From positions 186,001 to 250,000 of the forward strand of contig JAHBUB010000001.1 of the NCBI GenBank assembly GCA_019638285.1: DNA of 64,000 bases, in the 5' to 3' direction. The position numbers and the translations under genes were made by a program. Positions 23,015-41,275 of this stretch are shown in pieces (position 1 is the first letter of the stretch; each line of letters opens with the position of its first letter). The notes under the pieces were generated by a model. The model saw nothing but the letters and a program-made list of their open reading frames with translations. It searched no databases and had not been told where the DNA came from. This DNA comes from Cyclobacteriaceae bacterium. Its GTDB lineage: Bacteria > Bacteroidota > Bacteroidia > Cytophagales > Cyclobacteriaceae.

Positions 23015-23813
23015 TATTTGTAATTTTTATATCCTCTTCATTATACTTCTTGTGAAGCTTGACAGGCGCAGCCTTCTTTTTTTTCTTTTTCCTTACCCTG
23101 ATGTTGGTAAGCTCAATCATCATAGAGAATGCCACAGCAAAGTAAATATAGCCCTTCGGAATCACGTAGTGCAACGATTCTAAGAAAAGCATAAAGCCGA
23201 TAAGGATCAGGAAGCCTAGGGCGAGCACTTCCATAGAAGGATGTTCTTTGATAAACCGACTGATTCTGCCTGAGAAAATCAACATGACAATGATGGATAC
23301 GATTACAGCAATAATCATAATGCTCACATGATCCACTACACCGATGGCAGTAAGTACAGAGTCAAAAGAAAAAATTATGTCTAATAAAATAATCTGAACG
23401 ATAGTGCCAGAAACAGTAGCGGCTACTTTTTTAAAGTTTTCTTCTTCCTCTTCCTCTCCTTCCATTTCATGATTAATTTCCATGGTGCTTTTGGCGATCA
23501 GGAAGAGCCCGCCAAACCCTAAAATTAGATCTCTACCACTGAAAGATATGTCGTGGTTTAGTACAAAATTAGTGGGAATGGTAAACAGTGGTTCGGTAAA
23601 ACTGATGATCCAGGTGATACCCAGCAGGAAAAGGATGCGCACCCCCATGGCCAGCAGCAAACCAATGTTACGGGCCTTCCGCCTCTGACTTTCTTCCGGA
23701 AGCTTGTTAGATACAATGGAGATGAAAATAATGTTGTCGATACCAAGGATTATTTCCAGAAAGCATAAGGTGAGAAGGGCTATCCAGGTATCTGCTCTAA
23801 GGAACAATTCCAT
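23007..23813 (-). CDS. TerC family membrane protein
   Basis: A 268-residue TerC/Alx-type inner-membrane protein with seven to eight helices. Conserved aspartates lie in ILGIDNIIFI and FSFDSVLTAIG. Recent work connects TerC/Alx proteins with manganese export and metalation of exported proteins; tellurite resistance is the historical name. A run of Lys near the C-terminus (residues ~243-250) marks a basic cytoplasmic tail. It is the first gene of the operon that continues through DinB, YheT and SRAP. Confidence 0.92.
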   Translation of the reverse strand: MELFLRADTWIALLTLCFLEIILGIDNIIFISIVSNKLPEESQRRKARNIGLLLAMGVRILFLLGITWIISFTEPLFTIPTNFVLNHDISFSGRDLILGFGGLFLIAKSTMEINHEMEGEEEEEENFKKVAATVSGTIVQIILLDIIFSFDSVLTAIGVVDHVSIMIIAVIVSIIVMLIFSGRISRFIKEHPSMEVLALGFLILIGFMLFLESLHYVIPKGYIYFAVAFSMMIELTNIRVRKKKKKKAAPVKLHKKYNEEDIKITNNE

Positions 23814-23995: not shown

Positions 23996-24023
23996 AAATG
24001 CCTCTCGCTTCCAAGAGGCATTT
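23996..24023 (-). terminator. Hairpin terminator of the giant surface-protein gene
   Basis: A perfect 10-bp stem, AAATGCCTCT (23996-24005) with AGAGGCATTT (24014-24023), loop of 8 bases. On the minus strand it lies about 30 bases past the stop at 24053 and is followed by TTTCTTTATTAT when the end of the arm is included. The rest of 23814-24052 shows no gene and should hold the terC promoter. Confidence 0.8.
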
Positions 24024-24052: not shown

Positions 24053-27000
24053 TTATTTATGCACTACCATCACCTTTTTACGGATGAAAGCTCCTTTATC
24101 CGATTCGATCTGGAGCAGATATATACCGCCTGCAAGATCTTGGGTGCTTAATGTTTTACTATTCTGACCAGCTGGAATAAAAGTATCATGGATAATTTTG
24201 CCTACTTGATCCAGCAGCTTTACCGGAGTTGCGTGTGATGCAGGTATTGGAAGTTGAACAGTAAGCTCCTTGTCAACAGGGTTAGGATAAATAGCTATCC
24301 TCTCTAGGTGATTTGAGGATTCTTCAATACCAGTAACCACATCAGGCTCGGGCGGATTCGTGACTATCATTGATTGATACACCGCTTTTGAAGTGATGGT
24401 ATCTTGTTGCACAAATACTACGATGGCTCCTCCACCGGGAGTTGTAAAATTTTGACTATCCCAAATTACTTCAGGCACATTATAGGTTTCACCGGCCGTT
24501 AGTGGTGTGGTTATCTTATGGCCAACAGGAGAGGGTAACATTTTTCTTACCACATATAAAAATTTCGTATCACCATTTTGACCCAGTAACGAGGCGTCCG
24601 TAATTTCTTTCTCAACGATGAGCGTGTGCACAAATAGGTTTTTAGGGATGGGACCTGTGGCTAATAATTTTGTGTTTATCTTCACTACTCCATCTACTTT
24701 CTGAGCGTTAACTGATTCTATTCGCAGGAATGTAGGATCAAGCACGCGATCGTCATAAAAAGATTCTCCCCATGTGGTAAACGGACCATCTCTGAACAAT
24801 CCATCCAATCGTGCGGCTGGGGCAGAAGTAAGCCCGTAAAATGCGGAACGTGCATCGTAGATGTCTTGGCTTTGCTTGTTGATTGGATCCTCCCCCGGAA
24901 AGCTGGTGTGGTATTGAATTTTTACCAATTCAGTGGAACTATTCTTAAAAGTATTGTACTTCTCATTTTGTAACCTTGCTGCCTGGCCTGCTTTGCTGGA
25001 ACTGTTGGTAAAGTTTTCAATCAGTACCGTGCGTGTTCGTTCTCCAATAAGGAAATTATCAAAGGCAAATCCTTCTCCACCGGAAACAGTTGCTGCGAAC
25101 GCGACACGAAAATTCACTTGAGGTTGTCCTACTATGGCATCCAATGAGAAGGTGGCTCGTTTCCAGCTCTTATATTTTGTTGTTGAATTATCATCGCCTG
25201 TCCAGCCAGCATCAATGGATGATTGATTTCCTGGTTTACTGGAAATATTATTCTGATCATACCAGTTGATCCCTGATCCAACTTGTCCAACTACAATCCA
25301 ATTTGATTCTTTCTCCAAATTACCAGATGTATTGTATTGAAGAACGGCACCATCCACTCCTCTTGGGGTATTGGACCAGATATCCAAAGATATAACAGGC
25401 CGAGATGCCCCCGAAAAATCAAAGCAAGGACTAATTACATAGGACCGTTCATTCGCATTATTGTTTCCTGAGAGATTTGTTTTCCAAGCTCCGCCAGTTC
25501 CTGTTGCAGAAGAATCTCTATTAATGGTTATGCTTGAAGGCGTGCCATATTGCCAGGATGAATTAGTGCCTCCAGCGCTCCACCCACCATTATTTGAATT
25601 GAAGTTTTCTGAATATGGAGTATTGGCAGTAATTGCAGGGGCCACCTGAACTACAACAACCTGCTTTTGAATGGTGTCCTTACAATTAGCAGCTGATTTC
25701 ACAATTAACTCTACGATATCAGTTCCGGTAATATCATAATTTACATTGGGACTGCTGCCGGTACCAGCAGCACCAAATGTTAGTTGGTTATTTTTGGCAA
25801 AGTCCCAAGTGAAATTTCCAGCAGGAATTGCCACCCCATTAGTGACATCGGCTGCAAACTCCATGGAACCACCCAAGCATGCGTTTCTCCAACTAAAGTT
25901 AATTTGAGGAACCTCACTTACCTGAACATTTTGATTGCCTACAACCACACAACCATCCGATGTGGTCATGGTGTAGGTGACTGGAAAGAGACCAATATTG
26001 GAGTACTTGTGTTGAGGGTTGTCATAAGTGCCTTTGGTTTTGCCGCCATCAGAACCATCAGGAATTACACCTGAGCCGGGAGGGATACTTCCATTATCTC
26101 CAAATTGATATCCAATTTGATCAATGGTAGCACCACCGGGAACAACGACCGAAGTATTTTTAATATCCACGAATGTTCCTGCACAAGCGTCCCCAATGAC
26201 TAGGGAAGGATTTACACTCGGTAAAATGGTAACTAGCTTGGTATCTGAGTTTGAACAGCCACCACTGGAAGTATAAGTTAGATTATAGCTTTGCCCTGGT
26301 GACAGATTATTATTACTTGGATCAAGTTCCGCGGTACTAGGGGTGCCCACTGCAGGGGCAGGAGGATTCGTTCCTGCAACTATATTGATAAGACCAGCAG
26401 CAGCTGGCCCACTCCACACACCGCCTCCTGGAATTGCTTTTAGCTTTGTTACAACACCAGTTTTACAAACAGCACTTAGGCTTTGACCACCTTCGATGGA
26501 AATGCTCACACTTGCTAAGTCATTAATTGTAACTGTGACTATTGTGGCTATACTTTCGCAACTACTAACGGCTTGTGTGATGTAAAAGTTGGTTATGCTG
26601 GGTATGGAGGAATCAAGCCCTAACTCATTGGATGTGGCAGCAAACTGATTTGCAATTGGAGTGATTTGATTACTAAGGCCTGCATCACGATACCACTTAA
26701 TATTAGTACCAGATGTTACTGTAATAGGAGGACTGGAATCAATATCCTGATCTTTACAGAACGAGGGCGTGTTGTTTATAACCGGTGGCTCCAAAGGTAT
26801 CGGATTGATCGTAAATGTTACAGTAAAGGGATCGCTAGTGCATCCATTGATTGTTTGGGTGACATACCTATCGAATGAAATGGTGTTTGATGTAAAGTTG
26901 GTGCTAGGTACACTTAGGTCTGTTGTAGCAGAAACGGCCAGTGGATTAGCAGGATTTATTGGATTAGTAGGGTAAACCGTATACCATTGAACAGCAGTTC

Positions 27001-30000
27001 CAGTTACGTTAACAATTGCAAAGTCACCACCAGAACAAATGGCTGGGGGCGATGCAGTAGTTGGTACTGCTGGTTTTGCATATACATTTATAGTGACCAA
27101 CCTTGGAGCACTTTGACATCCATTTGTAGTTTGAGTAACATACCTTAGTGTAGTTGCCGGAGAGGCATCACTCACCCCTAACTCAAGTAGAGTGGGGGCA
27201 GCATTTCCTGATAAAGACACCCGCTCACTGGAAAGCCCTGAATCATTATACCATCTAAACAACGCTCCAGTTTGTCCTGTAACGGCTACCTGTTCTGTCA
27301 AAATACTTGGCCCCCCAAGGCAATATCCGCTTGAATAAATTGCTATTGGTTGAGGTGGAGTTTGATAAAAGTTTACATTCTGAGTTCTAGTAATTGTGGC
27401 GCTAGTTAGGTTATCCTTATAGACGGCATAAAATGTTACGATCTTGTTACCAGTTGATGTTATAAGACTAGGACTTATATGTATTGGAGAGCTTGTAATA
27501 ATAAAACCTTTGAACCAATTAATTTCATTCGCTGCTGTTACCTCTTGATACACTCCAGGAAGTCCGTTTTCAGCTTTAACGGACCCAAATGGTAGCAAAT
27601 TGGATGAATAATTACTTAATGGCAATATGTAAAGAAAGGTTGTGCCAGGAATACTATTGTTAGCTACGTCCATTGTAAAATTTGCATCCGAGCTACAATA
27701 GGCTGTAGCTAACCCTAATATTGATGTTGTTCCGTCATACACCTCAAAAATTCTTGTTTTAGTATCGGTGCATCCATTAGTAGTTACTGTGTAGGTAATG
27801 GTGTGCTGTCCTATAGGTACTCCAGAAGGATAAAAATTACTTCCAACAATCCCTGCTCCACTAAAGACTCCTCCTGCAGGCGTTCCAGTTAAATTTACTG
27901 GAGGTTCTTGATTTGAAAATGTTGAAATGGTGTTGGGTGTATTTGGCGGAGGCGTGGTTACAACAAAATCAGCAGTTGAGGTGGCTGTATTCTTCGTCAT
28001 TACAATAGAATTGGAAGTTGAAGGACAGCTTCCGGCTACTGTTACTATTACATCCACCATATCTCCATTGGTAAAATTGCTGGCATTTCTATTCAAAACC
28101 CTGCTGGCGGTATTTTGCGTAGTGGCTCCATTAATGCGGAAATTGTAGGTTGCTGCTCCAGATGGGGATGCGGTAAACTGAACGGTTTCATAGCTTGGAG
28201 ATCCATTTACAAAATTTGTGCATAGGGTTGAGCTACCACCTGTTATTGTAATATCCGCAACAGGTTTGGGCTGTACTGTAACTGTAACGGCCGTACCTGC
28301 ACTCTTACATGTACCAGGCTGTTGGGTAACATATCTTGTAATTGTTCCGCTTCCCGAAGTGACGAAACCCAGTTGAGTTAGAAGCGTAGGGCTATTGATA
28401 TTGGTAACTCCAGCGAGAGAAACAATCTCGTTAGTCAATGCAGCATCGGTATACCATTTTACTGCAGTATTGTTAGAAGTAACATTTGGGCCAGGAGATA
28501 TAACATCTCCCTGACAATATGCGGTGGGTGAGAACGAAACAACCGGTGCTGGTGCAGGGCTTCCTGAATTAATTGTGCCTAAATCGGTTGACCCAATTCC
28601 ATTAATTGTAGCTGTCCCGCCCGTTCTTTCAATTTGTGCATTAGGGGCCACGCTACCATCATAGGTTATTTTTATTCCACTTAAAGTAATTGATTCCTTT
28701 TTATTATTATTTCCATCAAGTGCGAATGTGATTGTAATTCTAGATGCGTTAACCACCATGCTTATTGAGGTAATATCTGTGCTAGCCCCTATACTTGGAC
28801 TCGTGGATATAGTTCCTTGCGCTGGAACAAAGCTGAAAGCCAAATCATTTAATTCGTAAAACACAGTTCCTCCAGAAGTAAAATCTGCTTTACCCACTTC
28901 AGCTATAGTGATATCGGTTAGCGTTACCTGACTACCGGAACAAACAGATGTAGAAGTCGATTGCGTAATATTTACACCATTGGATGGTGTGTCAAAATCG
29001 GTAAGTATAGTTGGGGCGGTGAAGTAATTATAAGTTGAACTATTAGAGCCATTCCAATTGTAAGGTATAATTGCATAGTTATATTGAGTGCCTACCGAAA
29101 GCCCTGTATTGTTTGAAGTAGTTGCACTGGTGTTTGTAATTGTAGCAACCAACGTAGTTCCTCCAGGCAATGAAAGAGAACCCGGGGCCACACCGTCAGC
29201 AACTCCTGAAGCATTAGGATTAGTGCCATCTGTACGTCTGAGGATAATATAGCCGGCTGCATTTGTAATTGTATTTGCAGCTGAAAAAGTGAGATTTATT
29301 TGTGTAGAACTACTTGCTTTTGCTGAAAAACTTGCTGGATGAGAGCTGGGTTCGGGTGATAATGTTCTGCCTGAAACAGCAGGAATAGTTCCATTGGTTT
29401 TGAAGTTAATAGCCGATCCAGATCCTCGATACGGATAAATTTCAAAGAAGTAATTGGTGGCTGCAGATAAATTAAATGTAACTGATTGAACACCTTGGGC
29501 TACATTCAACGCCCCATTGTTGTTACCAAAGTTTGTGTCATCGGCCACAGCCGTTCCGTCATTTATACTTGCGAAAGTTCCTGAAGAATTCCGTGCCACA
29601 ACTACGTAACTGGTCGGAAGGATAGCTCCTGTAGCATCATTCCATGTGAGTTCTATGGAGTTATCTGTTGTTGCATTTATCGCAAACCCAGTCACATGAT
29701 TAGTTGGTTCTGTGGCAAGAATGGTAGCGGATGTATTTGGGACGGTGGCAGCAGTTTTAAAGTTAACCGATGCTCCGGTTCCACGGTAAGAGTATATTTC
29801 AAAGAAATAGGTATCCTGTGTTAATGAGCTGAATGTTACCTGCTCTACCCCTGGTCCTACATTTAAAGCACCATTATCATCACTGAAGTCCGTATCATCA
29901 GGAACAAACGTTCCATCTGCAACAGAAGTAAATGTTCCTGAAGAATTTCTTGCTACTATAAGGTAATTGCTGGCTGAAGGGCTTCCTGTTGCATCATTCC

Positions 30001-31147
30001 ATGTTAGTTTTATGGAAGAGCTTGTTACTGTGTTTACAACAAAACTGGTGACATGGTTGGCGGGCTCAGAGGCGAGTATGGTGGCAGAGGCAGTTGGAAC
30101 TGTACCATCTGTTTTAAAATTTATAAATGAAGCAGCGCCATTATAGGGATAGATTTCAAACGAATAGGTATCTGGTGTAAGTGATGAAAAAGTTACTGAT
30201 TCAGCTCCCTGTGCAATGTTTTTGGCGCCATCATTATCTCCAAAATTGGTATCATCGGTTACGGGTGTGCCATCGGCTACTCCTGCAAAGGTTCCTGCTG
30301 AATTTCGGGCAACAATTAAATAATTTGATGGAGTAGTGCCTCCGGTTGCATCAGTCCATGTAAGCTGAATTGAATTGGAGGTAACACTACTTACAGCAAA
30401 TACAGTTGCATGATTAGTAGGCTCTGGAGCAAAAATGGTTGAACTAGCATTTGGAACGGTTGGTGCTGTATGGTAGTTAATAGTAGTTAAGGAACCTGTA
30501 TATGGATAAATCTCAAAAGTATATGTTTCAGGAGCTAAGGACGAAAAAGTTACGGTACCTACACCCTGAGCAATATTCTTTGCTCCATTGTTATTGGTGA
30601 AATCAGTGTCATCTGCAACTGGTGCCCCATCTGCAATGGAAGCAAAAGTGCCTGAAGAATTACGAGCAACAATCAGGTAATTGGTAGGAGGGGTTGCTCC
30701 GGCTGCATCGGTCCAAGTGAGTTGAACGGAATTTGAGGTTACTGAGCTCACCATGAAGTTCGTTACATGATTGGATGGTTCTGTAGCGAGGGTGAAAAAG
30801 AAAACCGATCCATCATCAGGAGTTGTTCCAGTTCCTGATCCATTAGTTGCAAACGCTGTATAATAAATCTTACTTCCGGGTGTTATTGATGATATTGAAT
30901 GAGAAAACACACCTGTTGTCGTGCCTCCTTCATCAATGGAGTTGGATGTTCCGACTGGTGTTGATGTACTCCATCGGGTTCCTCGGGCAGTAATTCCTGC
31001 ACCGGTTGTAACATTGCCACCCAAGGTTGCTGAGTTATTTGTAATGGAGGTGACAGTTGGTGTGGTTACCGTTGGAATCTGACCAAATGCAAAACTCGCA
31101 GAAATAAAAAAATAGAGTAGTGTTATACCTTTGATAATGATTTTCAT
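24053..31147 (-). CDS. Giant FN3/Ig-like T9SS surface protein
   Basis: A 2364-residue secreted protein. After a signal peptide (ending FAFGQ) comes a fibronectin-like lead domain, then four copies of a 119-residue FN3-type unit starting at residues 123, 242, 361 and 480 and a diverged fifth at 599. Each unit has a TW-x-DA strand, an Asp/Asn-rich loop (DDT-x-F) and an FEIYPY strand. Several Ig-like SprB/HYR-style repeats with YCQGD or CSGG-type openings follow, then a PKD-like region, a jelly-roll-like domain near 1905-2050, and an Omp28-like thioredoxin-fold domain (VLIENFTN) lacking the usual Cys pair. The last ~75 residues (IAIYPNPVDKELTV to the end) are a type A T9SS sorting domain. It is probably an adhesin or surface sensor, last in its operon. 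Confidence 0.87.
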   Translation of the reverse strand: MKIIIKGITLLYFFISASFAFGQIPTVTTPTVTSITNNSATLGGNVTTGAGITARGTRWSTSTPVGTSNSIDEGGTTTGVFSHSISSITPGSKIYYTAFATNGSGTGTTPDDGSVFFFTLATEPSNHVTNFMVSSVTSNSVQLTWTDAAGATPPTNYLIVARNSSGTFASIADGAPVADDTDFTNNNGAKNIAQGVGTVTFSSLAPETYTFEIYPYTGSLTTINYHTAPTVPNASSTIFAPEPTNHATVFAVSSVTSNSIQLTWTDATGGTTPSNYLIVARNSAGTFAGVADGTPVTDDTNFGDNDGAKNIAQGAESVTFSSLTPDTYSFEIYPYNGAASFINFKTDGTVPTASATILASEPANHVTSFVVNTVTSSSIKLTWNDATGSPSASNYLIVARNSSGTFTSVADGTFVPDDTDFSDDNGALNVGPGVEQVTFSSLTQDTYFFEIYSYRGTGASVNFKTAATVPNTSATILATEPTNHVTGFAINATTDNSIELTWNDATGAILPTSYVVVARNSSGTFASINDGTAVADDTNFGNNNGALNVAQGVQSVTFNLSAATNYFFEIYPYRGSGSAINFKTNGTIPAVSGRTLSPEPSSHPASFSAKASSSTQINLTFSAANTITNAAGYIILRRTDGTNPNASGVADGVAPGSLSLPGGTTLVATITNTSATTSNNTGLSVGTQYNYAIIPYNWNGSNSSTYNYFTAPTILTDFDTPSNGVNITQSTSTSVCSGSQVTLTDITIAEVGKADFTSGGTVFYELNDLAFSFVPAQGTISTSPSIGASTDITSISMVVNASRITITFALDGNNNKKESITLSGIKITYDGSVAPNAQIERTGGTATINGIGSTDLGTINSGSPAPAPVVSFSPTAYCQGDVISPGPNVTSNNTAVKWYTDAALTNEIVSLAGVTNINSPTLLTQLGFVTSGSGTITRYVTQQPGTCKSAGTAVTVTVQPKPVADITITGGSSTLCTNFVNGSPSYETVQFTASPSGAATYNFRINGATTQNTASRVLNRNASNFTNGDMVDVIVTVAGSCPSTSNSIVMTKNTATSTADFVVTTPPPNTPNTISTFSNQEPPVNLTGTPAGGVFSGAGIVGSNFYPSGVPIGQHTITYTVTTNGCTDTKTRIFEVYDGTTSILGLATAYCSSDANFTMDVANNSIPGTTFLYILPLSNYSSNLLPFGSVKAENGLPGVYQEVTAANEINWFKGFIITSSPIHISPSLITSTGNKIVTFYAVYKDNLTSATITRTQNVNFYQTPPQPIAIYSSGYCLGGPSILTEQVAVTGQTGALFRWYNDSGLSSERVSLSGNAAPTLLELGVSDASPATTLRYVTQTTNGCQSAPRLVTINVYAKPAVPTTASPPAICSGGDFAIVNVTGTAVQWYTVYPTNPINPANPLAVSATTDLSVPSTNFTSNTISFDRYVTQTINGCTSDPFTVTFTINPIPLEPPVINNTPSFCKDQDIDSSPPITVTSGTNIKWYRDAGLSNQITPIANQFAATSNELGLDSSIPSITNFYITQAVSSCESIATIVTVTINDLASVSISIEGGQSLSAVCKTGVVTKLKAIPGGGVWSGPAAAGLINIVAGTNPPAPAVGTPSTAELDPSNNNLSPGQSYNLTYTSSGGCSNSDTKLVTILPSVNPSLVIGDACAGTFVDIKNTSVVVPGGATIDQIGYQFGDNGSIPPGSGVIPDGSDGGKTKGTYDNPQHKYSNIGLFPVTYTMTTSDGCVVVGNQNVQVSEVPQINFSWRNACLGGSMEFAADVTNGVAIPAGNFTWDFAKNNQLTFGAAGTGSSPNVNYDITGTDIVELIVKSAANCKDTIQKQVVVVQVAPAITANTPYSENFNSNNGGWSAGGTNSSWQYGTPSSITINRDSSATGTGGAWKTNLSGNNNANERSYVISPCFDFSGASRPVISLDIWSNTPRGVDGAVLQYNTSGNLEKESNWIVVGQVGSGINWYDQNNISSKPGNQSSIDAGWTGDDNSTTKYKSWKRATFSLDAIVGQPQVNFRVAFAATVSGGEGFAFDNFLIGERTRTVLIENFTNSSSKAGQAARLQNEKYNTFKNSSTELVKIQYHTSFPGEDPINKQSQDIYDARSAFYGLTSAPAARLDGLFRDGPFTTWGESFYDDRVLDPTFLRIESVNAQKVDGVVKINTKLLATGPIPKNLFVHTLIVEKEITDASLLGQNGDTKFLYVVRKMLPSPVGHKITTPLTAGETYNVPEVIWDSQNFTTPGGGAIVVFVQQDTITSKAVYQSMIVTNPPEPDVVTGIEESSNHLERIAIYPNPVDKELTVQLPIPASHATPVKLLDQVGKIIHDTFIPAGQNSKTLSTQDLAGGIYLLQIESDKGAFIRKKVMVVHK
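29354..30781 (-). repeat. Four tandem 357-bp units inside the giant gene
   Basis: Four successive coding units of exactly 119 codons (357 bp) without indels, covering residues 123-598. The units start EPSNH, EPTNH, EPANH and EPTNH. A fifth unit starts EPSSH at residue 599 and then diverges. The equal length suggests duplication within the gene and possible copy-number change by recombination. Confidence 0.85.
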
Positions 31148-31170
31148 ATTCTTAAATGAATAATAGCCAA

Positions 31171-32442
31171 TTATTTAACCTCTCCTTTTTTATCCGTTTT
31201 TATCAGGAATACAGAACTAAGACCCCCAATAGTTAAGGTTCCGCATATTAAAAATCCACCGTCATCTGTAAGTCTAACGGTACTTGGAGTTTCATCACCG
31301 CTTCCACCAATTGTTTTATTCCAAAGCATATTTCCAAAGGGATCCAGTCTGATTAAAAGAATATCGATTCCTCCATTGCCACGGGTTGTGGTTGTTGCCA
31401 TTGTACCCACCAACAGATAGCCGCCATCTTTGGTCGATACCAATGCATTTCCAGTATCCCCTGTTTCGGAATTTGTTGGAATTGTTAATGAGGTGTTATC
31501 CGCAGACAAAATTCCGTCAAAAAACTTTTGACTGTCCTGCATTATATTGCCCGATGGATCGGTTCTGACAAAATAAATATTTTGGTTTTGACCTTGAATA
31601 TTTGAGAATGTGCCTATAATTCCAAATCCTGTTCCGGAAGGCTGAATATCCGCTGCGCTGTAATAGAGGTCTTCATTTTGTCCAAATAATCCACTATTTA
31701 CAAATGTAGAGTTAGGTGAAATAAATGGAACTGAAAGATAAGCACGCTTGGTACTTGATTGTTCATCCAATGCAGAGCTTGCCCAAATTATCTTTTGAGT
31801 AGCGGTAAAATGAATACTCCTTGAATTGATAAAATCCCTATTTACATATCCATATGTCTGAGACCAAACTACTTTCAAAGAAATAGGGTCATGAGCTGAT
31901 ACAAATGACCTTGTTGGGCTATTTGGGGCATCAATTTCCCCAAGTGTAATTACGTTGCCCGTGTCATCAAGAGTAATTGCACCACCATGAAAATACACAT
32001 TAGTAGCGGAGGAACCCCAACTATAGTCATTTACAGTATTACCAGAATCATCTATTTTTATAAGCCGGGCTTTGGCTTTTACAATGTCTGTAACCTGCGC
32101 TGCGAGGGGATCCACCGCTATACTATCTCCCAGAACTAAATAACCATCAGTTGTTACCTTAATGGCTCTCATTGCAGAATTTGGAATCTCTCTTTCCCAA
32201 ATCACTTTGCCGGCTAAATCTGTTCTGCTAACAATCGAACTAAACTTCAAATCTTGATTAAGATTCCCTAAGAGAATAAAACCATCTTGTAAAGGCTCTG
32301 CAACGGCTCCGCTATAGTTTGCAGATTTCTCATAAAAATGAATAAAGGTATTCCTGTTCGTTAGCTCAACGTCTTCTAAGTTTTTACATCCCGCAAACTC
32401 CAAAAGCACAATACTCAAAATAATGAATTTACCTAGCCTCAT
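31171..32442 (-). CDS. Lipoprotein with beta-propeller-like repeats, function unknown
   Basis: A 423-residue predicted lipoprotein with lipobox EFAGC (Cys19). Several degenerate repeats of the form DGGYLLVG and DGGFLICG, each followed by a strand such as LLIRLDPFGN or FLIKTDKKG, indicate a beta-propeller-like fold. No catalytic motif is visible. It sits 1 base after the outer-membrane barrel gene and 23 bases before the giant surface protein, so it may form part of a surface complex with them. This is inferred from order only. Confidence 0.78.
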   Translation of the reverse strand: MRLGKFIILSIVLLEFAGCKNLEDVELTNRNTFIHFYEKSANYSGAVAEPLQDGFILLGNLNQDLKFSSIVSRTDLAGKVIWEREIPNSAMRAIKVTTDGYLVLGDSIAVDPLAAQVTDIVKAKARLIKIDDSGNTVNDYSWGSSATNVYFHGGAITLDDTGNVITLGEIDAPNSPTRSFVSAHDPISLKVVWSQTYGYVNRDFINSRSIHFTATQKIIWASSALDEQSSTKRAYLSVPFISPNSTFVNSGLFGQNEDLYYSAADIQPSGTGFGIIGTFSNIQGQNQNIYFVRTDPSGNIMQDSQKFFDGILSADNTSLTIPTNSETGDTGNALVSTKDGGYLLVGTMATTTTRGNGGIDILLIRLDPFGNMLWNKTIGGSGDETPSTVRLTDDGGFLICGTLTIGGLSSVFLIKTDKKGEVK

Positions 32443-32443
32443 C

Positions 32444-33478
32444 TTATTTCAATGTTATTTTTTTCGGTTTGAAAATATTGTGCACATAACCGAGCGTAAG
32501 TGAAAGTGAGTTGATTTTAAAAATTCCATCTATGGCTTGATAATTAAAAACGAGTTCATCATTGTTATAAGTATCCTTTTTATTATTCGCATTTAAAAGG
32601 CCATAATTATAACGAACCTCAATCACACCGTAACCTCCTCCCAGACGATACTTTATGCCTGCACCGAGTATTAAACTTAAATTGAATTTTTCTCGGTCGT
32701 TGGTGATAGAGAATGTTTTGGATTCAATTGGGGAGAAGCCGATTCTTTTTCGTTCTGCATTTAAACTCCCATTCACCAAGTAATCCACAGAAACACCGCC
32801 CAATGCATAAGGGTTTAGTTTGTGGTCTAATAAATGATACTGCACGGCAAGAGGTAGTGATATATATGTTAATGTTTGATTAGCGATCAATGCAAAATCT
32901 CCATCTGTAACGGGCAAGGTATTAGTATTTTTAAATGCCTTTTGCTGAAAATATAATTCTGGATTTAATGTTATCTTTTTAGTAAATGGAATCTCAACGG
33001 AAATACCAGCAAGAAATGAAAATCGGTTATCATATTTACCCACACCCTCATTCGCAATATCCGAAGTAGAGACATTAGGTTGTGCAGTTACTGCCCCCGC
33101 TTTAAGCCCTACTCTGTAAATGGGAGTAGTTCTATACGTTTTGTACAGCGCAACAAATTCAGCAGGGTCAATCGCTTCATTAATTTCGAAGTAATTATCG
33201 GTTTGCAGTAAAAGCAACATAGACTCATCGGCCTTCTTAGGATCATTCAAATAGATATAGGCTTGGGTAAGAAGCTTTAATGCATCTACTTTTTCTTGAG
33301 TTGTAAATCCATTTTTTAAACAGCCGTCAAGCAAGAGTGGTAATTCGTGCAATCTTCCCAGTTCATAGGTAGATCTTGCAAGACGCAAAGTCTGAGCGCA
33401 GGAGGAGGTTGGGATTTGTGCATACCCACTAACTAAACAGCAGATTGAAAGACAAAAGCCAAATAGAATTTTCTTCAT
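32444..33478 (-). CDS. Outer-membrane beta-barrel protein with N-terminal helical repeat domain
   Basis: A 344-residue protein. The ATG at 33478 begins a clean signal peptide (MKKILFGF to GYAQ), so the longer frame reaching into the upstream gene is rejected. Residues ~25-125 look helical and TPR-like (AYIYLNDPKKADESMLLLL). From ~130 on, alternating strands (VGLKAGAV, FSFLAGISVEIPF, LNPELYFQQKAF, LSLTLGYVHNIF) form a PorT/OmpA-like barrel. It lies 4 bases after the STAND NTPase gene and 1 before the lipoprotein gene. It may anchor the module at the outer membrane; that is inference. Confidence 0.82.
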   Translation of the reverse strand: MKKILFGFCLSICCLVSGYAQIPTSSCAQTLRLARSTYELGRLHELPLLLDGCLKNGFTTQEKVDALKLLTQAYIYLNDPKKADESMLLLLQTDNYFEINEAIDPAEFVALYKTYRTTPIYRVGLKAGAVTAQPNVSTSDIANEGVGKYDNRFSFLAGISVEIPFTKKITLNPELYFQQKAFKNTNTLPVTDGDFALIANQTLTYISLPLAVQYHLLDHKLNPYALGGVSVDYLVNGSLNAERKRIGFSPIESKTFSITNDREKFNLSLILGAGIKYRLGGGYGVIEVRYNYGLLNANNKKDTYNNDELVFNYQAIDGIFKINSLSLTLGYVHNIFKPKKITLK

Positions 33479-33482
33479 AATA

Positions 33483-36400
33483 TCAATTGTCGTTGGCAGG
33501 AAGATTAGGACAGGTTTTTTCATATCTTAAATCTTCCCCTACATTATAGGTCCACTCCTCATTGCTCATGTTTCTAGTTGTATATCCACATAAAAGTGCC
33601 GACATGGTTTTTATTTTTGTAGGATATGCATGGATAGTCTGGTCTAATTGGCCCACCACGGTTTCTTGTACACTATGAATACCTGCCATCAACTGCTCGT
33701 CATCAGGAGAAAAAGCCACGCTCCACACCCAATCATGTTCGCTCAACAGGGTAGGAGCTTCTGCGAGACGTTTTATATTCCACATACGAATGGTGTAATC
33801 TTTGCTGGCAGTAGCCATAAAATTTCCTGCATGATTGAACTTGATATCCTCTATGGCGGAAGTGTGACCAGTAAGCTCCCTTATCAGTATTCCATTACTA
33901 TAAATCCATACCCTTCCTCTTTCGTTTCCAACGATTAGTTGTGAGCCATTGGGATTGAAAGTGATGGCTGTCAACCGGGTATCCGGCATCTTATAAGTTA
34001 CTACGGAATAATTATTTTTAGTATCCCACACGTACACATTCCCTGCGTCACCGGCTCCGGCAATTTTACTTCCATCGCGACTCACGCTTATTGCCGTAAT
34101 TTTCTCTTTTGAGGTAATTATTTCTTTTACCGTTTGCATGTCGGAGTATTCAATACTATAGCCGGCATTGTCTCGTGCATAAAATCCTTTCCCATCAGGA
34201 GTAAAGGTTAAATTTTCTGCCGCTTGCCTAAAACCCTTAATCAGCCTTGGTGCTGCTTTTGGATTTCTGAGGTCGTATACTTCTACGTAATTATTATTTG
34301 CATTTGCAAAATACAAACCTCCGGCAATGAGGGTATTGCCATCCGGACTGAGGTCCATTGAATATATCTGGTAACCGCTTGTCTTGCTTCGATCAGGTAC
34401 GATTTCATTGGCTATCCAATTACCATCTGAATAACTCCATTGAATAATCTTACCATCACTACCTCCAGAATAAATGTAATTGACGTTTGGTTTTGTTACT
34501 AAAGCCCTAGCTGCACCCTTTGTGTGTGCTTTTAAACTCTTGGTAAGCGGGTGTGGCTCTGGCTGATTTTTTAGTGCATAATACAACCCGCGATAAATGT
34601 CATTGTCAAATTCATATCCACCATAAGTAGAATTAAAATTAAAGGCTTGTTGTGCTATTAAGGCCTCTTGCTCGGGGTCGTTACTCAAATCCATCGATTT
34701 AATAGCCATGGATTTGGCAATAGAAAGGTATCGTCTTCGTCTCGCTTCTTCTTCTTGTCGTTTGGCCTCTGCCTCAGCAGTCCTTGCTTGTTGTTCATTT
34801 TCCTTGGCCAGTTGCTCATTTTCTAATGCCTTTATTTTTTGCCTTTGCGCTTCGGCTTCAGCAGCCTCAGCCTGAAGCCTGCGCTGCTCTGCTGCTGTTC
34901 TTTGTATAGCCTCTGCTTCTCTTGCTGCAATGGCTGCTTCAGTTGCTTTTTCTGCAGTTTCCTTTTGTTTAATCGCTTCTTCTTTTTGTTTCTCAGCTTC
35001 TAGTTGTGCTGTTGTGGCTGCTTTTGCATTCTCTACCGCTAACGCCTCCTGCCTCTTTGCTTCTGTTTGCTGATAGATCGCATACACCAGAAACATCAAG
35101 GCTACGACCATCAATGAGCCAAATACAATGGCTGTAACACGTGCCCGTTGTAGTTTGCGCTTCTGCTCAAGTTCTTTTATCCGTTGCTCTGTCTCAAACT
35201 CTTTTCTTGAGTACTCAAGAAAGACCATCGTACGCTCAAAGGCGGGATGGTAGCGTTGCCCCCATACCAGCGTGGGTTTGTGTTTGGCTTGCCAGTTGAG
35301 TGCCAGTTGCAAATCAGGTGGTCTCCACAGACCTGCCTTACCTACCTGATACATGGCGGCAGCTTCGGCTAAACGCAAATACATTTGTACTGCCTCTGCT
35401 TCGTCATCTACCCAATTCTTTAATCGTATCCATATCCGCATAAGACTCTCATGCGAAATATCAATCATGGATTTTGATCCCAACTCCATGCCATGCGCAG
35501 GTGTGAGTAATGACCTTCCAGGCTCACGGAATTTTTCAATTACCTCAGCTACATCATTCTCGGAAACATCCGCTATGGCAGCTATTTCGTTGAGCCTTGT
35601 GGGTCTTCTGATGCCAAAATTCTCACCTCTTTTTTCCGTGATGGCCTTAAAGAGGATTTCACAAATGCGTTTCTGTTCTTCATCCAACTCCTCGTAAGCT
35701 TCATTGGCATGCTGCGACAACGCTTCTGACATGGTGCCGATCGCCTCATAATGTTTAAGGTCAACGGGCTCATCTTCATAATCCCTATAGTTTGCCCAAT
35801 AAGACCAAGTACGCATGAGCGCATGTTGAAGGATCGGAAGCTGATCAGGATTATCTCCCAGATCATTCAATAGCTGTTGCACCAATCGTGATGATATGTT
35901 GGCGCCACCTACTGCCACAGGTCCTTCTACCGCTCTCCGCTTTTGATCGCGTGTCATTTGCGGAATTAGGTAGTGACTATCATTCAACTTTCTGGTTAAT
36001 TCAGGGAACTGGGCACAATCCCCGATAAAGTCGGAACGCATGGTAATGCCGACATAAATAGGAGAGTCCTCATAGTTGACAGCCTCCATCAGCAAATTTA
36101 CAAAGGCAAGGGTTTCGTCTACTGATCCCGGGTCGGTGCTGTCTTTGAATCGGAAAAGCTCTTCAAACTGGTCAACAAGAATGAGGTAGTTGGTGTTTGA
36201 GGATCCTCGTGATTGCTGCACAGCCTCCACTAAACCCAAAGAGCTACTCCTTAGTAGCGTAGATACAATGGTGCGTTTTATTTTTTGATCTTCAATGTTT
36301 GCATTTGCATAATCATCAGATGATTTTAAAAGTGCCTCGGCCAGGTTATCGATGGGCCCCGCACCAGGTCTTGTTACTACTACCTCCCAGTTGGGACTCA

Positions 36401-36647
36401 CGTCAGTAAGAAAACCACCATACAGTATGGGCAATACGCCACAATACACAAAAGATGATTTACCACTTCCTGAGGGACCAATTACACCCACGAAACGATT
36501 TTTGGAAAGCTTAAGGAGTACTTCATCACTTTGGCCCTCCCGTCCAAAGAAGAGATGACTCTCTTCAATTTTAAAGGGTCGCAAGCCAGGGAATGGATTT
36601 GCTAAACCTGTTTTTACTCCTTGATTTTCGTCAACTGTCTGACTCAT
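33483..36647 (-). CDS. Membrane-anchored STAND NTPase with coiled coil and WD40 propeller
   Basis: A 1054-residue protein of the nSTAND1 type. It opens with NPFPGLRPF and FFGRE, then Walker A GPSGSGKS (57-64), Walker B LILVDQFEE (155-163) and RSDFIGD (204-210). A winged-helix-like region follows to ~480. One membrane helix lies at about 503-524, then a long Ala/Glu/Gln-rich coiled coil (~525-640), and a C-terminal WD40 propeller (~700-1040). STAND NTPases are ATP-driven switches that oligomerise on sensing a ligand. With one helix, the NTPase and the WD40 part should be on opposite sides of the membrane. The TIR-like gene lies 5 bases upstream. Confidence 0.9.
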   Translation of the reverse strand: MSQTVDENQGVKTGLANPFPGLRPFKIEESHLFFGREGQSDEVLLKLSKNRFVGVIGPSGSGKSSFVYCGVLPILYGGFLTDVSPNWEVVVTRPGAGPIDNLAEALLKSSDDYANANIEDQKIKRTIVSTLLRSSSLGLVEAVQQSRGSSNTNYLILVDQFEELFRFKDSTDPGSVDETLAFVNLLMEAVNYEDSPIYVGITMRSDFIGDCAQFPELTRKLNDSHYLIPQMTRDQKRRAVEGPVAVGGANISSRLVQQLLNDLGDNPDQLPILQHALMRTWSYWANYRDYEDEPVDLKHYEAIGTMSEALSQHANEAYEELDEEQKRICEILFKAITEKRGENFGIRRPTRLNEIAAIADVSENDVAEVIEKFREPGRSLLTPAHGMELGSKSMIDISHESLMRIWIRLKNWVDDEAEAVQMYLRLAEAAAMYQVGKAGLWRPPDLQLALNWQAKHKPTLVWGQRYHPAFERTMVFLEYSRKEFETEQRIKELEQKRKLQRARVTAIVFGSLMVVALMFLVYAIYQQTEAKRQEALAVENAKAATTAQLEAEKQKEEAIKQKETAEKATEAAIAAREAEAIQRTAAEQRRLQAEAAEAEAQRQKIKALENEQLAKENEQQARTAEAEAKRQEEEARRRRYLSIAKSMAIKSMDLSNDPEQEALIAQQAFNFNSTYGGYEFDNDIYRGLYYALKNQPEPHPLTKSLKAHTKGAARALVTKPNVNYIYSGGSDGKIIQWSYSDGNWIANEIVPDRSKTSGYQIYSMDLSPDGNTLIAGGLYFANANNNYVEVYDLRNPKAAPRLIKGFRQAAENLTFTPDGKGFYARDNAGYSIEYSDMQTVKEIITSKEKITAISVSRDGSKIAGAGDAGNVYVWDTKNNYSVVTYKMPDTRLTAITFNPNGSQLIVGNERGRVWIYSNGILIRELTGHTSAIEDIKFNHAGNFMATASKDYTIRMWNIKRLAEAPTLLSEHDWVWSVAFSPDDEQLMAGIHSVQETVVGQLDQTIHAYPTKIKTMSALLCGYTTRNMSNEEWTYNVGEDLRYEKTCPNLPANDN

Positions 36648-36652
36648 GATGA

Positions 36653-38095: not shown

Positions 38096-38110
38096 TGTAG
38101 ACGTATTATT

Positions 38111-41100
38111 TTATATCTGTGTATACTGTAATTCTTTCTTTGTAATGTTTTTTATTAGTTTTTGTACCAGCTCATGGTGATTAGCGAGCACGAAGTAGAA
38201 ATCAGGCACACTGATCCTGAAAACCACACTGTATTCGGAAGCTGTTGCTTCTTTTATTACTGGAACAACTCCATTTTGAAATAGATCTCCAAAAGCGGAT
38301 CCGCGAGGCATCACTATTTTTTTTTCGTTATCTTCCTGTAGTGCAATCTCTCCGTGTGCAACTATTAAAATCGGGTTCGGCTCATTTTCATCAAAGACTA
38401 TTTTGCTTCCCGGATGAAGTGTAATAGGAACTATCTTGTCTGCCAAATCGCTCAACATGTTGCCTTCAATACCTTGAAAGATTTTGAGTTCTTTAATAAA
38501 CATGACCATCTCTATGCCCAAAAAGAATCCATCTTCTAAGCCATCTAATAATTGATTGTTTTCTATGGATGAATCGAGAAATTTTTTGTCTTTAAAGGGG
38601 AGTCGCTCTGCAATGGTTTCATACATGGCTTTGTCTTTATTATAGATCACCCATGCTGCTGTTTCTTGAAGTAACTTGTCCTGGTTAAACATTTGTGCAA
38701 TCAAACCTCGGCTTATTCTGAAGTCCTTCATGAAGGCTGTAGCATGAACTGCACATAGTTTTGTCCAACGATTATTAAAATTGAAATCACGATTGAGTAT
38801 GTAATTGATTACTTGAATCGGGTCATAGCTTTCTCTGGGGAAGTAAATTTGAAGCTTTTCTAATTTGTCACGGGTGGTATCATCATCCAAAAGAGGAATG
38901 AGTTTTGGCTTTAGATCAGGATCTAAAAAGAGATCCAGTAGCTCTAGCGCGTATGCGGTGCCATCTGTCGAGTCTGATTCAATATTCTCTTTTACCAATT
39001 GTATTGAATTGGGGTCATAGATAAGTGACAAAAGCAGTGTAATCTGATCGTAGTTGTCGATTACTTCTTCCCTTAATGCTTCTCTCAAAAACTTGAAATG
39101 ATTTTCATTAGGTAGCTCCTCCAATGCTGCGAGGTTCCATAAAGTTTTGCCCATCTCTACATCTAGCAGATCTTTTACAATTGTGGCCTCTCTACCCACC
39201 GCCTGGTAGGTCATGAAACGCAATGAAAACAGAATCTGTTTTACAATTCTTTTATCTGGATAGTCCGCCTTTGCCCACAGCAGTGCAATACCTTTTGACC
39301 CACCGATATGTCCAATAATTTGAACGATCTTCAGCATCACCAGATCACGTTGTCCTGACTTGTGAAATGCTGCCTCCAGTGCCTCCAAGGCTGGTTCACC
39401 CGCCTCCTTTAGTGCTGCAGCGGCCTGATGTGCATAGGAAGGAGAAGAGAGCAATTCGATTAATACGTTCCATGTCTCTGGCCTTCTTACTTTACGGGCG
39501 GTTAGCAATGCCTCTTCTCTCACCTTAGGATCACCATCGCGTAAAAGTTCTAGTAAAATAAAGATTGTTTTTTGACTTACCATTTTGCGTAGCAGCTTCG
39601 CTGCCAGCATTCTGTCAGATTGTTTTACTGACTTACTTAGTTTCATCAAGCGCTCTATAGAAATAGAAAGCAGATCGCTGTCCTCGGCTTCCCCAGCCGC
39701 TTGCCTGGCAAGTCCTTTTATCTCAGTACCCTCATCCTGACCGATCCCCAATTCAGAGATTTTGTTTTTGGCAAATTCTCTTACCTTCTTTAAGTCGCTA
39801 TTTGCTAACTGGATAATGGAGATTTCAAATAAAGCAGGCTCGAGCTTTTCCATCAACTTTAAACCATATATTACTTTTTCTTCTATGGTACCATTTACCT
39901 CTATCCACAGTACACTGTCCAGTGTATATTCTTTTACAATGTTTTTTTCGGTTTCAGATTTATTCTTGACCAACGAACTTTGAAGCGTCTCTCGATAGCC
40001 TTTGTGCATACGATTGGTTACCCAATACCATACCACCAAGACAGGAATGGTAAACAGTGTAATGGACAATAAATTGGTTATCTCGAATGAGTTGATTAAC
40101 ACGATAAGTCCACCCGCAAGGGTACTTCCAATCCCCATGACGATCCCTTCAATTTTGGTTTGCGCATCTATTTTAATTGACTTTTCCATGGGTACATAAT
40201 AGTACTTGAAAGTAGGCTCATCAATCGCATCTTGCATCGAGTTGATAAAGAGCTTACTCATGGCGATCATAATAAAGAAGAAGATAACGGTATTGCCTAC
40301 AGAGTTGTTGAAACCGAAAAACGCACCCAATGCAAATGCACCTCCGGTAAAAATGAGGAGTAGTAATGGATTGATCAGGAGTGATACACGAAGTCCATAC
40401 TCTTTGTTGATCTTGTCGGTGACGAAAGTGGTAAACAAAAAACTGAATACCACAATGGTTGCTTCAAAGTAACTGAGGAAGTAGGGCAGGTCCTTATCAT
40501 TGAATTGGTTGGTGGTTACGTTGAAGAAAGAATAATCAACGAATTGCATGGCGATCATAGATACTACTATAAACAAAGACATTGACATGATGTATTTGTT
40601 TCCAAGAAACTGTCGGGCACTCAGTTTTATGTTCTCTGATTCTTTTATTGCTGTGTCAACATCCTTCTTTAAGTAGTTGTTGGTAAGAATAATGTAGAGC
40701 ACCAGATAGGTAATAATGCTAAACAACCCGATTGTAAAAAGAGATTCGGGCTCTACGCCAAAATTGAGGAGTACGGGTATGGCAAAGAAAGCCAGAATGG
40801 CTGCGATATCCATTCCCACATCCACACTTCCCACTATTCTTTTTACCTGCCTCAGGTTAAAAAGACGATTAAATGTACCCCAGAAAATGAGGAGGGAGAG
40901 AAAGGTAAAGGGTAGAATTAATGTAAACCCGAAGTAGTAGAGTAGATTCTCATCTTCAATCCACCGATCACCGTATTCGATAAAGGCAGTTAGGCCAATA
41001 ATGACGCAAAGACTTCCAATGGCCAAATGGGTGAACCTGACCCTACCCTGAAAGAAATTATAAACACCAGTCGCAAAAATTGAAAACACCCCGGAGAACA

Positions 41101-41275
41101 TAAGTGCTTTTGGAAGATCTGTTTCTTCATCATAAAGATTAAGAAAAAGGGTCTGTGAGGCTACAGTTACCGTAGCGAGAAACAAGCCCATACAGAAACT
41201 GATCGCGAGAAGTAGGAATACCTTTCCGGATTCTTCCGGCTCCACATCCAGCATTTTCAGCAACCGTGATTTCAT
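38111..41275 (-). CDS. NTT/Npt-like nucleotide transporter fused to HEAT repeats and cNMP-binding-like domain
   Basis: A 1054-residue protein, first in its operon. Residues ~15-440 have about twelve helices in the pattern of the ATP:ADP antiporter-like (Npt1/Npt2, TLC) family, found in rickettsiae, Chlamydiae, plastids and as fusions in free-living bacteria. Residues ~480-900 are helical HEAT-like repeats (DGDPKVREEALLTARKVRRPE). Residues ~930-1045 form a CRP-like cyclic-nucleotide-binding fold (IFQGIEGN, GSAFGDL). The phosphate-binding cassette is altered (GD for GE, Lys for Arg before EATAS), so cNMP binding is doubtful. The 197 bases upstream (41276-41472) hold no gene and no clear TAnnTTTG box. 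Transport substrate is unknown. Confidence 0.85.
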   Translation of the reverse strand: MKSRLLKMLDVEPEESGKVFLLLAISFCMGLFLATVTVASQTLFLNLYDEETDLPKALMFSGVFSIFATGVYNFFQGRVRFTHLAIGSLCVIIGLTAFIEYGDRWIEDENLLYYFGFTLILPFTFLSLLIFWGTFNRLFNLRQVKRIVGSVDVGMDIAAILAFFAIPVLLNFGVEPESLFTIGLFSIITYLVLYIILTNNYLKKDVDTAIKESENIKLSARQFLGNKYIMSMSLFIVVSMIAMQFVDYSFFNVTTNQFNDKDLPYFLSYFEATIVVFSFLFTTFVTDKINKEYGLRVSLLINPLLLLIFTGGAFALGAFFGFNNSVGNTVIFFFIMIAMSKLFINSMQDAIDEPTFKYYYVPMEKSIKIDAQTKIEGIVMGIGSTLAGGLIVLINSFEITNLLSITLFTIPVLVVWYWVTNRMHKGYRETLQSSLVKNKSETEKNIVKEYTLDSVLWIEVNGTIEEKVIYGLKLMEKLEPALFEISIIQLANSDLKKVREFAKNKISELGIGQDEGTEIKGLARQAAGEAEDSDLLSISIERLMKLSKSVKQSDRMLAAKLLRKMVSQKTIFILLELLRDGDPKVREEALLTARKVRRPETWNVLIELLSSPSYAHQAAAALKEAGEPALEALEAAFHKSGQRDLVMLKIVQIIGHIGGSKGIALLWAKADYPDKRIVKQILFSLRFMTYQAVGREATIVKDLLDVEMGKTLWNLAALEELPNENHFKFLREALREEVIDNYDQITLLLSLIYDPNSIQLVKENIESDSTDGTAYALELLDLFLDPDLKPKLIPLLDDDTTRDKLEKLQIYFPRESYDPIQVINYILNRDFNFNNRWTKLCAVHATAFMKDFRISRGLIAQMFNQDKLLQETAAWVIYNKDKAMYETIAERLPFKDKKFLDSSIENNQLLDGLEDGFFLGIEMVMFIKELKIFQGIEGNMLSDLADKIVPITLHPGSKIVFDENEPNPILIVAHGEIALQEDNEKKIVMPRGSAFGDLFQNGVVPVIKEATASEYSVVFRISVPDFYFVLANHHELVQKLIKNITKKELQYTQI

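What the first reader, a model, noticed from the sequence alone, without database searches (positions are those of the whole stretch)
24053..41275. Six-gene NTT transporter, TIR-like, STAND-WD40, OMP, lipoprotein and giant T9SS protein operon
Seen: six minus-strand genes with gaps of 15, 5, 4, 1 and 23 bases and a terminator after the last. Known: TIR-like proteins and STAND NTPases are switch and effector parts in bacterial immunity and signalling; the NTT family moves nucleotides or NAD across membranes; T9SS carries the giant protein to the surface. Inference: the operon may link a surface sensor/adhesin, through an outer-membrane protein and lipoprotein, to a membrane-anchored STAND switch with TIR-like and nucleotide-transport partners. 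I know of no described system with this composition. It could be defence, self-recognition, or contact sensing.
Basis: partly seen in the sequence, partly recalled or inferred. Interest (0 to 1): 0.78.

Follow-up and report, generated by a model that had tools for sequence, protein, structure and literature searches.

The report
STAND switch with swappable outer half
A six-gene operon of environmental Cytophagales bacteria appears to link a huge surface protein, through the outer membrane, to a molecular switch inside the cell; its inner half stays constant while its outer half is exchanged as a unit between relatives, as if a receptor were being swapped on a fixed chassis.

Summary
In detail: six minus-strand genes, tight gaps, terminator. 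The operon is real and old: its order recurs in nearly every one of the 80 loci kept from a search with gene 2, and in nine other families of the order, though not everywhere. Gene 3 is a STAND ATPase predicted to face the cytoplasm, one transmembrane helix, and a WD40 domain predicted in the periplasm. Gene 4 has a periplasmic domain plus a barrel; in related modules the same domain sits on a TonB-type barrel. The unexpected result: WD40, barrel and lipoprotein are replaced together while genes 1, 2 and the STAND domain stay. Breakpoints lie at the membrane in gene 3 or between the two domains of gene 4 (one pair: 92% DNA identity over 10.6 kb ending at gene 3 residue ~532, no match beyond). 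Two cassette types need 9 changes on the inner-half tree (AU p 6e-7 against one origin). The TIR protein lacks the catalytic glutamate in both recognisable TIR-like domains (80 of 89 homologues lack both), so a NADase effector is unlikely. I read it as a trans-envelope recognition relay with an exchangeable receptor half. The function is inferred, not shown.

The parts
38111..41275 (-). gene 1: NTT-like membrane part (about res. 1-440; 39956-41275), HEAT (about 450-900; 38576-39928), cNBD-like C-terminus (about 917-1050; 38126-38527)
   Evidence: NTT structures E 5e-16; PKG cNBD E 5e-9; hydrophobic segments only in the first 420 residues
36653..38095 (-). gene 2: TIR (20-129; 37709-38038), DUF4062 (187-261; 37313-37537) and a third conserved domain (about 345-478; 36662-37063); catalytic Glu positions are A85 and Q264
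33483..36647 (-). gene 3: nSTAND1 ATPase (18-434; 35346-36596), one TM helix (506-524; 35076-35132), variable linker, WD40 domain (about 640-1040; 33528-34730)
   Evidence: single TM in 84 of 88 rows; more K+R before than after it in 84 of 84; Walker A and B conserved
32444..33523 (-). gene 4: signal peptide, conserved N-domain P4N (37-136; 33116-33415), OMP_b-brl_2 barrel (about 137-355; 32459-33115)
31171..32442 (-). gene 5: predicted lipoprotein, fast-evolving, exchanged together with the barrel
   Evidence: (weak SBBP beta-propeller lipoprotein match, E 0.0013)
24053..31147 (-). gene 6: giant T9SS-exported surface protein: variable fn3/Ig-like part, conserved C-terminal part (about 1707-2364; 24056-26029) with type A sorting domain (2286-2361; 24065-24292)
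23996..24023 (-). intrinsic terminator after gene 6
41473..42747 (-). queA (queuosine biosynthesis), upstream neighbour; control gene, not part of the system
   Evidence: (found in 54 of 61 loci)
23007..23813 (-). terC-like gene, downstream neighbour; not part of the system
   Evidence: (8 of 9 stretches)

Best explanation
A trans-envelope recognition and signalling relay built on a STAND ATPase. SHOWN by sequence: conserved operon; STAND domain with intact ATP-binding motifs followed by one TM helix; an outer-membrane barrel with a conserved N-domain; a surface giant with a T9SS signal; an outer half (WD40, barrel, lipoprotein) exchanged between relatives on a constant inner half (gene 1, gene 2, STAND domain), with breakpoints at the membrane or at the P4N/barrel boundary. 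INFERRED: the giant protein and the lipoprotein/barrel meet an external ligand (another cell's surface, a polymer or a particle). The barrel's periplasmic N-domain P4N passes the state to the periplasmic WD40 domain. Through the TM helix this lets the STAND domain exchange ADP for ATP and oligomerise. The cytoplasmic partners, a TIR-like protein without catalytic Glu acting as scaffold and the NTT-HEAT-cNBD membrane protein, form the output complex. In some lineages output may run into SpoIIE/RsbW-type partner switching. Exchange of the outer half changes what is recognised without touching the switch.
For: Order conserved in the clade and as 1-2-3-4-5 in nine other families, two of them with an extra HAMP-SpoIIE gene. 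In 192 genomes of the order, 49 of 77 STAND places have an NTT-like gene within 8 kb and 44 of 77 the TIR protein. Topology: one TM in 84 of 88, more positive charge before it in 84 of 84. P4N is found on TonB-type barrels beside STAND and NTT in six loci. Mean p-distance: STAND 0.14, DUF4062 0.28, queA 0.45, WD40 0.48, barrel 0.68, lipoprotein 0.70. Barrel and lipoprotein types agree in 67 of 67 loci of the clade. Given inner distance, WD40~barrel r 0.61 and P4N~WD40 r 0.66 (p 0.001), STAND~barrel 0.03 (p 0.31). Type I/II: 9 changes on the inner tree, 8 forced by starred branches; AU p 6.4e-7 against one origin of type II. L054/L055: 92.2% DNA identity over 10,566 b ending at window-numbered gene 3 residue 532. 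Change-points fall at gene 3 524-693 (6 pairs) or gene 4 133-144 (5 pairs) in 11 of 13 pairs with a large drop. At inner identity 70-80%, flanking genes do not depend on cassette type (queA 58 v 59%, next gene 63 v 58, LexA-like 77 v 73), the barrel does (45 v 26).
Against: No function was tested. The NTT is not always linked: in nine g38 genomes and seven f15 genomes STAND and NTT-like genes lie apart, and 28 of 77 STAND places have no listed NTT within 8 kb, at least two of them (G060, G122) because the contig breaks. The own-genome second copy lacks gene 2. A lipobox-like motif was found by a crude pattern in only 60 of 88 gene 5 rows. Distance correlation with queA is only moderately better for inner parts (r 0.43-0.51) than for P4N, barrel and gene 5 (0.33-0.34), and queA~barrel given inner distance is weakly positive (0.14, p 0.03). 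The types are clustered on the inner tree (9 changes; 17.3 in shuffles), so exchange is recurrent, not free. A small change at the P4N/barrel boundary also shows in two control pairs (L066/L074, L092/L094), so rate difference contributes there. L055, in the most extreme pair, is one 15.2-kb MAG scaffold that could be misassembled. Three loci of the clade (L056, L060, L061) have Glu at the DUF4062 position. The periplasmic place of WD40 rests on hydropathy and charge; no structure could be predicted.
Confidence: 0.55

Rival explanations
1. The outer half is exchanged because phages, contractile particles or predators use the barrel and surface protein as docking sites; diversity is escape, and the operon's job is something ordinary such as envelope or nutrient sensing.
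For: Barrel and lipoprotein are the fastest-evolving parts measured; surface-exposed envelope parts are common phage targets (general knowledge).
Against: The exchanged unit often includes the predicted periplasmic WD40 domain and co-varies with P4N, which phages would not touch directly; co-adaptation to a new barrel could still explain that.
Confidence: 0.25
2. An anti-phage or abortive-infection system of the STAND/TIR kind, with NAD depletion as output.
For: nSTAND1 and TIR occur in conflict systems (PMC8195603, PMC10907252, passages); DUF4062 in Swarozyc (PMC13174449); gene 2 has TIR and DUF4062 above cut-off; a few homologues keep one catalytic Glu (9 of 89).
Against: 80 of 89 homologues, the window's included, lack both Glu; only weak PADLOC matches; intact full-length gene 2 in 30 of 36 same-genus genomes, with queA in 54 of 61 loci, unlike patchy defence genes.
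Confidence: 0.1
3. A nutrient or polymer uptake and sensing locus: the giant protein and barrel bind a substrate and the NTT-HEAT protein imports nucleotides, with STAND/TIR as regulators.
For: NTT-like part with K374 and E376 invariant in 36 close rows and kept in 76 and 79 of 85 wider rows; six related modules carry a TonB-type receptor in place of the simple barrel.
Against: Pfam shows no hydrolase or TonB receptor in the window's six genes; its barrel is a small OMP_b-brl_2; replacement of WD40 with the barrel points to signalling.
Confidence: 0.15

Closest known systems
nSTAND1 NTPase conflict systems (PMC8195603, PMC7159879, PMC10907252; passages only)
   Same: nSTAND1 domain; TIR-family partners occur; modular sensor end
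   Different: the words 'TonB' and 'outer membrane' occur nowhere in the main text of PMC7159879 or PMC8195603, and the one 'outer membrane' in PMC10907252 concerns lipoprotein targets of retroelements; here a TM, WD40, OMP, lipoprotein and T9SS protein form one operon
DUF4062 TIR-like NADases: Swarozyc and TEP1 (PMC13174449, preprint; abstract, parts 1-2 of 6 and figure legends read)
   Same: DUF4062 next to a STAND-class ATPase and WD40 repeats, as in TEP1 (DUF4062-NACHT, WD40); here split over two genes
   Different: Gln in place of the catalytic Glu in 84 of 89; membrane-spanning; stable chromosomal place
NTT-HEAT-cNBD fusion proteins (Major et al. 2017, PMC5381601; passages)
   Same: gene 1 has this three-part architecture; function unknown there too
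   Different: the passages I saw propose ATP uptake or exchange and name no STAND, TIR or outer-membrane partner
TraA polymorphic kin recognition of myxobacteria (PMC6626042, PMC5562445; search listing with start of abstract only)
   Same: variable outer part on a constant system, surface recognition
   Different: as far as I recall no STAND and no operon of this kind; homotypic recognition not tested here
FecA-FecR-FecI type trans-envelope signalling (recalled)
   Same: outer-membrane receptor with periplasmic signalling domain talks to a single-TM inner-membrane protein
   Different: STAND ATPase in place of anti-sigma/sigma factor

Membership tests
STAND NTPase (nSTAND1) | nSTAND1 domain with Walker A and B | tested here: met
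   325 bits; in 88 rows the G, K and S of GPSGSGKS and DQFEE of the Walker B stretch are 100%
TIR/DUF4062 NADase | catalytic glutamate | tested here: not met
   window A85 and Q264; E in 4 of 89 and 5 of 89, neither in 80 of 89; the five canonical DUF4062 alignments I could read show E opposite Q264
TIR/DUF4062 NADase | NAD hydrolysis | not testable with these tools
   needs protein
NTT-HEAT-cNBD | NTT, HEAT and cNBD parts in one chain | tested here: met
   PDB profile hits E 5e-16 and 5e-9, HEAT_2 above cut-off
NTT-HEAT-cNBD | cyclic-nucleotide-binding Arg (recalled motif) | tested here: inconclusive
   window has no Arg at the expected motif end (E1009, T1011); alignment there is loose
NTT nucleotide transporter | transport of nucleotides or NAD | not testable with these tools
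   needs a transport assay
T9SS cargo (gene 6) | type A C-terminal sorting domain | tested here: met
   Por_Secre_tail 45.9 bits, TIGR04183 33.6 bits, cut-off 23
Anti-phage defence system | match to a known defence family, or patchy distribution in islands | tested here: not met
   best PADLOC match E 6e-4 on short motifs; 30 of 36 same-genus genomes, stable place. Unknown systems are not excluded
Polymorphic recognition locus | variable outer part exchanged on a constant part | tested here: met
Polymorphic recognition locus | same-type partners recognise each other | not testable with these tools
   needs strain mixing

The most novel reading that the evidence does not exclude
A bacterial allorecognition (self/non-self contact) system that uses a STAND switch, the protein class of animal and plant innate immunity, wired through the whole cell envelope to a giant surface protein, with specificity changed by exchanging the whole outer half at the membrane.
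Probability: 0.3. Interest if true: 0.92.

Novelty: categorically new. Interest (0 to 1): 0.74.

Why it matters
STAND ATPases are best known as cytoplasmic sensors (general knowledge). A STAND switch whose sensor end appears to lie in the periplasm, tied to an outer-membrane protein, would be a new way to bring signals across two membranes. The natural exchange of its outer half gives ready-made chimaeras: strains with nearly identical inner machinery and different receptors, which makes the question of what it senses directly testable. It also gives the uncharacterised NTT-HEAT-cNBD proteins a conserved partner.

Tried and rejected
Rejected: chance clustering (conserved order); defence island; active TIR NADase in the window; simple rate difference as the whole cause of the inner/outer contrast (four concordant control pairs gain 19-46 log units at the best change-point, the 13 drop pairs 248-741; flank controls); the own-genome paralogue as donor of the second cassette (its barrel and lipoprotein fall in separate clusters).

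Led nowhere: PDB search with the gene 2 alignment (no hit up to E 1) and with two stretches of the L127 protein (two hits at E 0.14 and 0.46; none); the L178 TIR found one plant TIR at E 0.003. Bacteroidetes promoter pattern: one match in the window, at 821-850, fewer than the 4.07 expected by chance, none at the operon. The sigma-70 scan was no better than shuffles. My first DUF4062 comparison sliced the wrong part of the L127, L128 and L130 proteins and was redone.

Limits: cluster cut-offs (0.74 for gene 5, 0.70 for the barrel) were chosen by me; outside the clade the two do not always agree (L157; L114 against L115 and others). The pairs were picked after seeing the distances and share loci, so they are not independent. 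The change-point search leaves out the hypervariable linker (gene 3 residues 528-640) and the gene 4 signal region, so a membrane breakpoint is placed only between the TM helix and about residue 643-693, except L054/L055, where DNA places it at 532. Two of 13 drop pairs fall elsewhere (L056/L060 at gene 4 residue 66, L056/L061 at gene 3 residue 1033). Trees are quick ones (SH-aLRT only). Rows dropped before counts: one search kept 80 of 93; one search kept 89 gene 2 rows (at least 440 aa, no X, L126 and later left out); one search used 47 of 80 loci plus the window; one search used 58 of the 65 type I/II rows; one search used 60 of 67. The NTT list was cut at about E 1e-10, and I entered 123 of its places (second pieces of one gene left out), so 'no NTT within 8 kb' is an upper bound. 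In one search I read the five alignments printed before the output was cut, of 24 loci. Only 17 + 20 + 20 + 20 + 12 stretches were fetched from genomes, chosen by me.
Full report
WHAT IS THERE. Gene 1 is an NTT-HEAT-cNBD-like protein: Pfam sees HEAT and only a sub-threshold MFS, but a profile of 36 homologues finds solved NTT carriers at E 5e-16 and cGMP-kinase cNBDs at 5e-9. This architecture was described in 2017 with unknown function (PMC5381601, passages). Gene 2 has TIR_2 and DUF4062 just above cut-off, plus a third conserved stretch. Gene 3 is nSTAND1, one TM, a variable linker and WD40. Gene 4 is a small barrel after a conserved N-domain for which Pfam has no match. Gene 5 is a predicted lipoprotein. 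Gene 6 is a T9SS giant.

HOW OLD AND HOW LINKED. A search with gene 2 gave 93 relatives, of which 80 loci were kept. Adjacent pairs are kept in 74 of 77, 77 of 77, 69 of 71 and 66 of 68 cases where the stretch allows. The sixth slot holds an ORF of more than 150 aa in 66 of 69 loci, most running off the stretch, although only 41 of 64 are BLAST-recognisable as gene 6. In the same genus, 30 of 36 genomes, the window's included, have an intact full-length gene 2 and one more (G013) a broken copy; of the five without, four are under 90% complete. The order 1-2-3-4-5 is also found in nine other families of the order: f5, f7, f14, f15, f16, f20, f22, and with an extra HAMP-SpoIIE gene f10 and f12. 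In 192 genomes of the order, 49 of 77 STAND places have a listed NTT-like gene within 8 kb, 44 the TIR protein, 33 both and 17 neither. In a genome of about 5 Mb a random place would be that near in about 0.3% of cases (my arithmetic). Against: STAND and NTT lie apart in nine g38 and seven f15 genomes (L134 and L135 for one g38 genome). Outside the order this STAND type is rare: six further genomes among 197 of the class.

VARIANTS. The own genome has a second operon without gene 2 (L129), also in five relatives (L154-L158). In families f11 and f13 (L148, L149, L150, L184, L185) the STAND gene is followed by a TonB-dependent receptor (Pfam barrel and plug in five of five) that carries the gene 4 N-domain, then a small gene and an NTT-HEAT gene. 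Around them in L149 and L150 are an RsbW-like HATPase_c_2, a Reg_prop/Y_Y_Y sensor with HATPase_c and a response regulator-SpoIIE. L119 is a similar form that keeps the TIR protein. In five genomes (G080, G089, G120, G131, G154) the STAND gene stands in or beside an extracellular contractile injection cluster with Pfam-confirmed sheath, tube, Pvc16 or CIS_tube genes; in G089 the NTT-TIR-STAND-OMP-lipoprotein genes run into it on one strand.

TIR CATALYSIS. In 89 homologues the TIR catalytic position (C82+3, residue 85) is mostly N, L, T, H or A, and Glu in four distant ones; E87, two residues on, is conserved in 80, and without a structure I cannot exclude that it serves. The DUF4062 position is Gln in 84 and Glu in five, three of them (L056, L060, L061) within the clade. 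80 of 89 have neither Glu. The five canonical DUF4062 proteins whose alignments I read have Glu opposite Q264; PMC13174449 reports that such a Glu is required for NADase activity. The third stretch has Lys at 418 in 88 of 89; that it is a TIR-like domain and this its corresponding position is my guess. I read gene 2 as a scaffold.

THE OUTER HALF IS EXCHANGED. In 47 loci plus the window the mean distance is 0.14 for the STAND domain, 0.28 for DUF4062, 0.45 for the neighbour queA, 0.48 for WD40, 0.68 for the barrel and 0.70 for gene 5. Barrel and lipoprotein fall into types that agree in 67 of 67 loci of the clade (41 type I with the window, 24 type II, 2 type III). On a quick tree of the inner half (58 loci), types I and II need 9 changes, 8 forced by starred branches; shuffled labels need 17.3, so the types are partly inherited. 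One origin of type II is rejected (AU p 6.4e-7). L054 and L055 are 92.2% identical over 10,566 bases, from upstream genes to window-numbered gene 3 residue 532 just after the TM helix, with no blastn match beyond; their proteins are 96, 97, 73, 34 and 26% identical for genes 1 to 5, and their flanking genes 94-98%. L068/L070 keep WD40 at 81% and change at gene 4 residue 133, the domain boundary. Drops occur within type I too: L043/L046 have inner 90, STAND 98, WD40 54, barrel 48, gene 5 39%, with flanking genes at 69, 82 and 91%. At equal inner identity (70-80%) flanking genes are alike in same-type and different-type pairs, the barrel is not (45 against 26%; 114 and 92 pairs). Given inner distance, WD40 co-varies with the barrel (0.61) and P4N with WD40 (0.66), the STAND domain does not (0.03); queA does weakly (0.14). 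Plain correlation with queA differs little between inner (0.43-0.51) and outer parts (0.33-0.39). In 26 of 60 loci the nearest inner relative is not the nearest outer relative. The place is stable: queA in 54 of 61 loci, terC downstream in 8 of the 9 stretches that reach well past gene 6 (five of type I, one of type II, two untyped; the ninth, L235, type II, has another gene, types). All 11 giants in L231-L241 match the C-terminal part of gene 6, with lengths of 1936 to over 4900 aa where whole (one, L240, is broken).

HOW IT MAY WORK. The gene 3 topology puts STAND inside and WD40 in the periplasm, where gene 4's N-domain lies. The two breakpoints cut the chain where a contact would have to be kept: either WD40 and P4N travel together, or both stay and barrel plus lipoprotein change. 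This suggests contacts WD40-P4N and barrel-lipoprotein. The rest (ligand, oligomerisation, output through genes 1 and 2) is inference from the families.

LITERATURE. Nine searches listed no paper on this combination; only openly licensed PMC papers are held there. 'nSTAND1' occurs in two papers of the library.

VERDICT. Real, conserved, and not described in what I could search. The exchange of the outer half at the membrane is the main new result. The function is not shown. I call it categorically new as a system (STAND switch joined to an outer-membrane receptor set), although every component family but the gene 4 N-domain and gene 5 is a known one.

Noticed in passing
L138/L186, L136/L187, L182, L181, L189: STAND genes of the gene 3 family lie in or next to extracellular contractile injection clusters in five genomes; in one (G089) the five-gene module runs straight into the cluster.
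   Followed up: partly
L148, L149, L150, L184, L185: Related modules: STAND, TonB receptor with the gene 4 N-domain, small gene, NTT-HEAT; in L149 and L150 with RsbW-like HATPase_c_2 and response regulator-SpoIIE: a possible output route through partner switching.
   Followed up: partly
L119:2247-15037: Variant with TrkA_N protein (weak RyR match), TIR-DUF4062 protein (with the TIR Glu present), STAND, TonB-type barrel, formyltransferase-like protein and NTT.
   Followed up: no
L127, L128: DUF4062 protein followed by two long nSTAND1-like proteins, a separate arrangement in the same genus.
   Followed up: no
L129 (own genome C62), L154-L158: Second operon without the TIR gene: NTT, STAND, OMP, lipoprotein, then a further ORF (giant where the stretch is long enough).
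   Followed up: partly
window gene 3 residues 528-640 (about 34728-35066): Linker between TM and WD40 is hypervariable even between relatives whose WD40 domains are alike.
   Followed up: no
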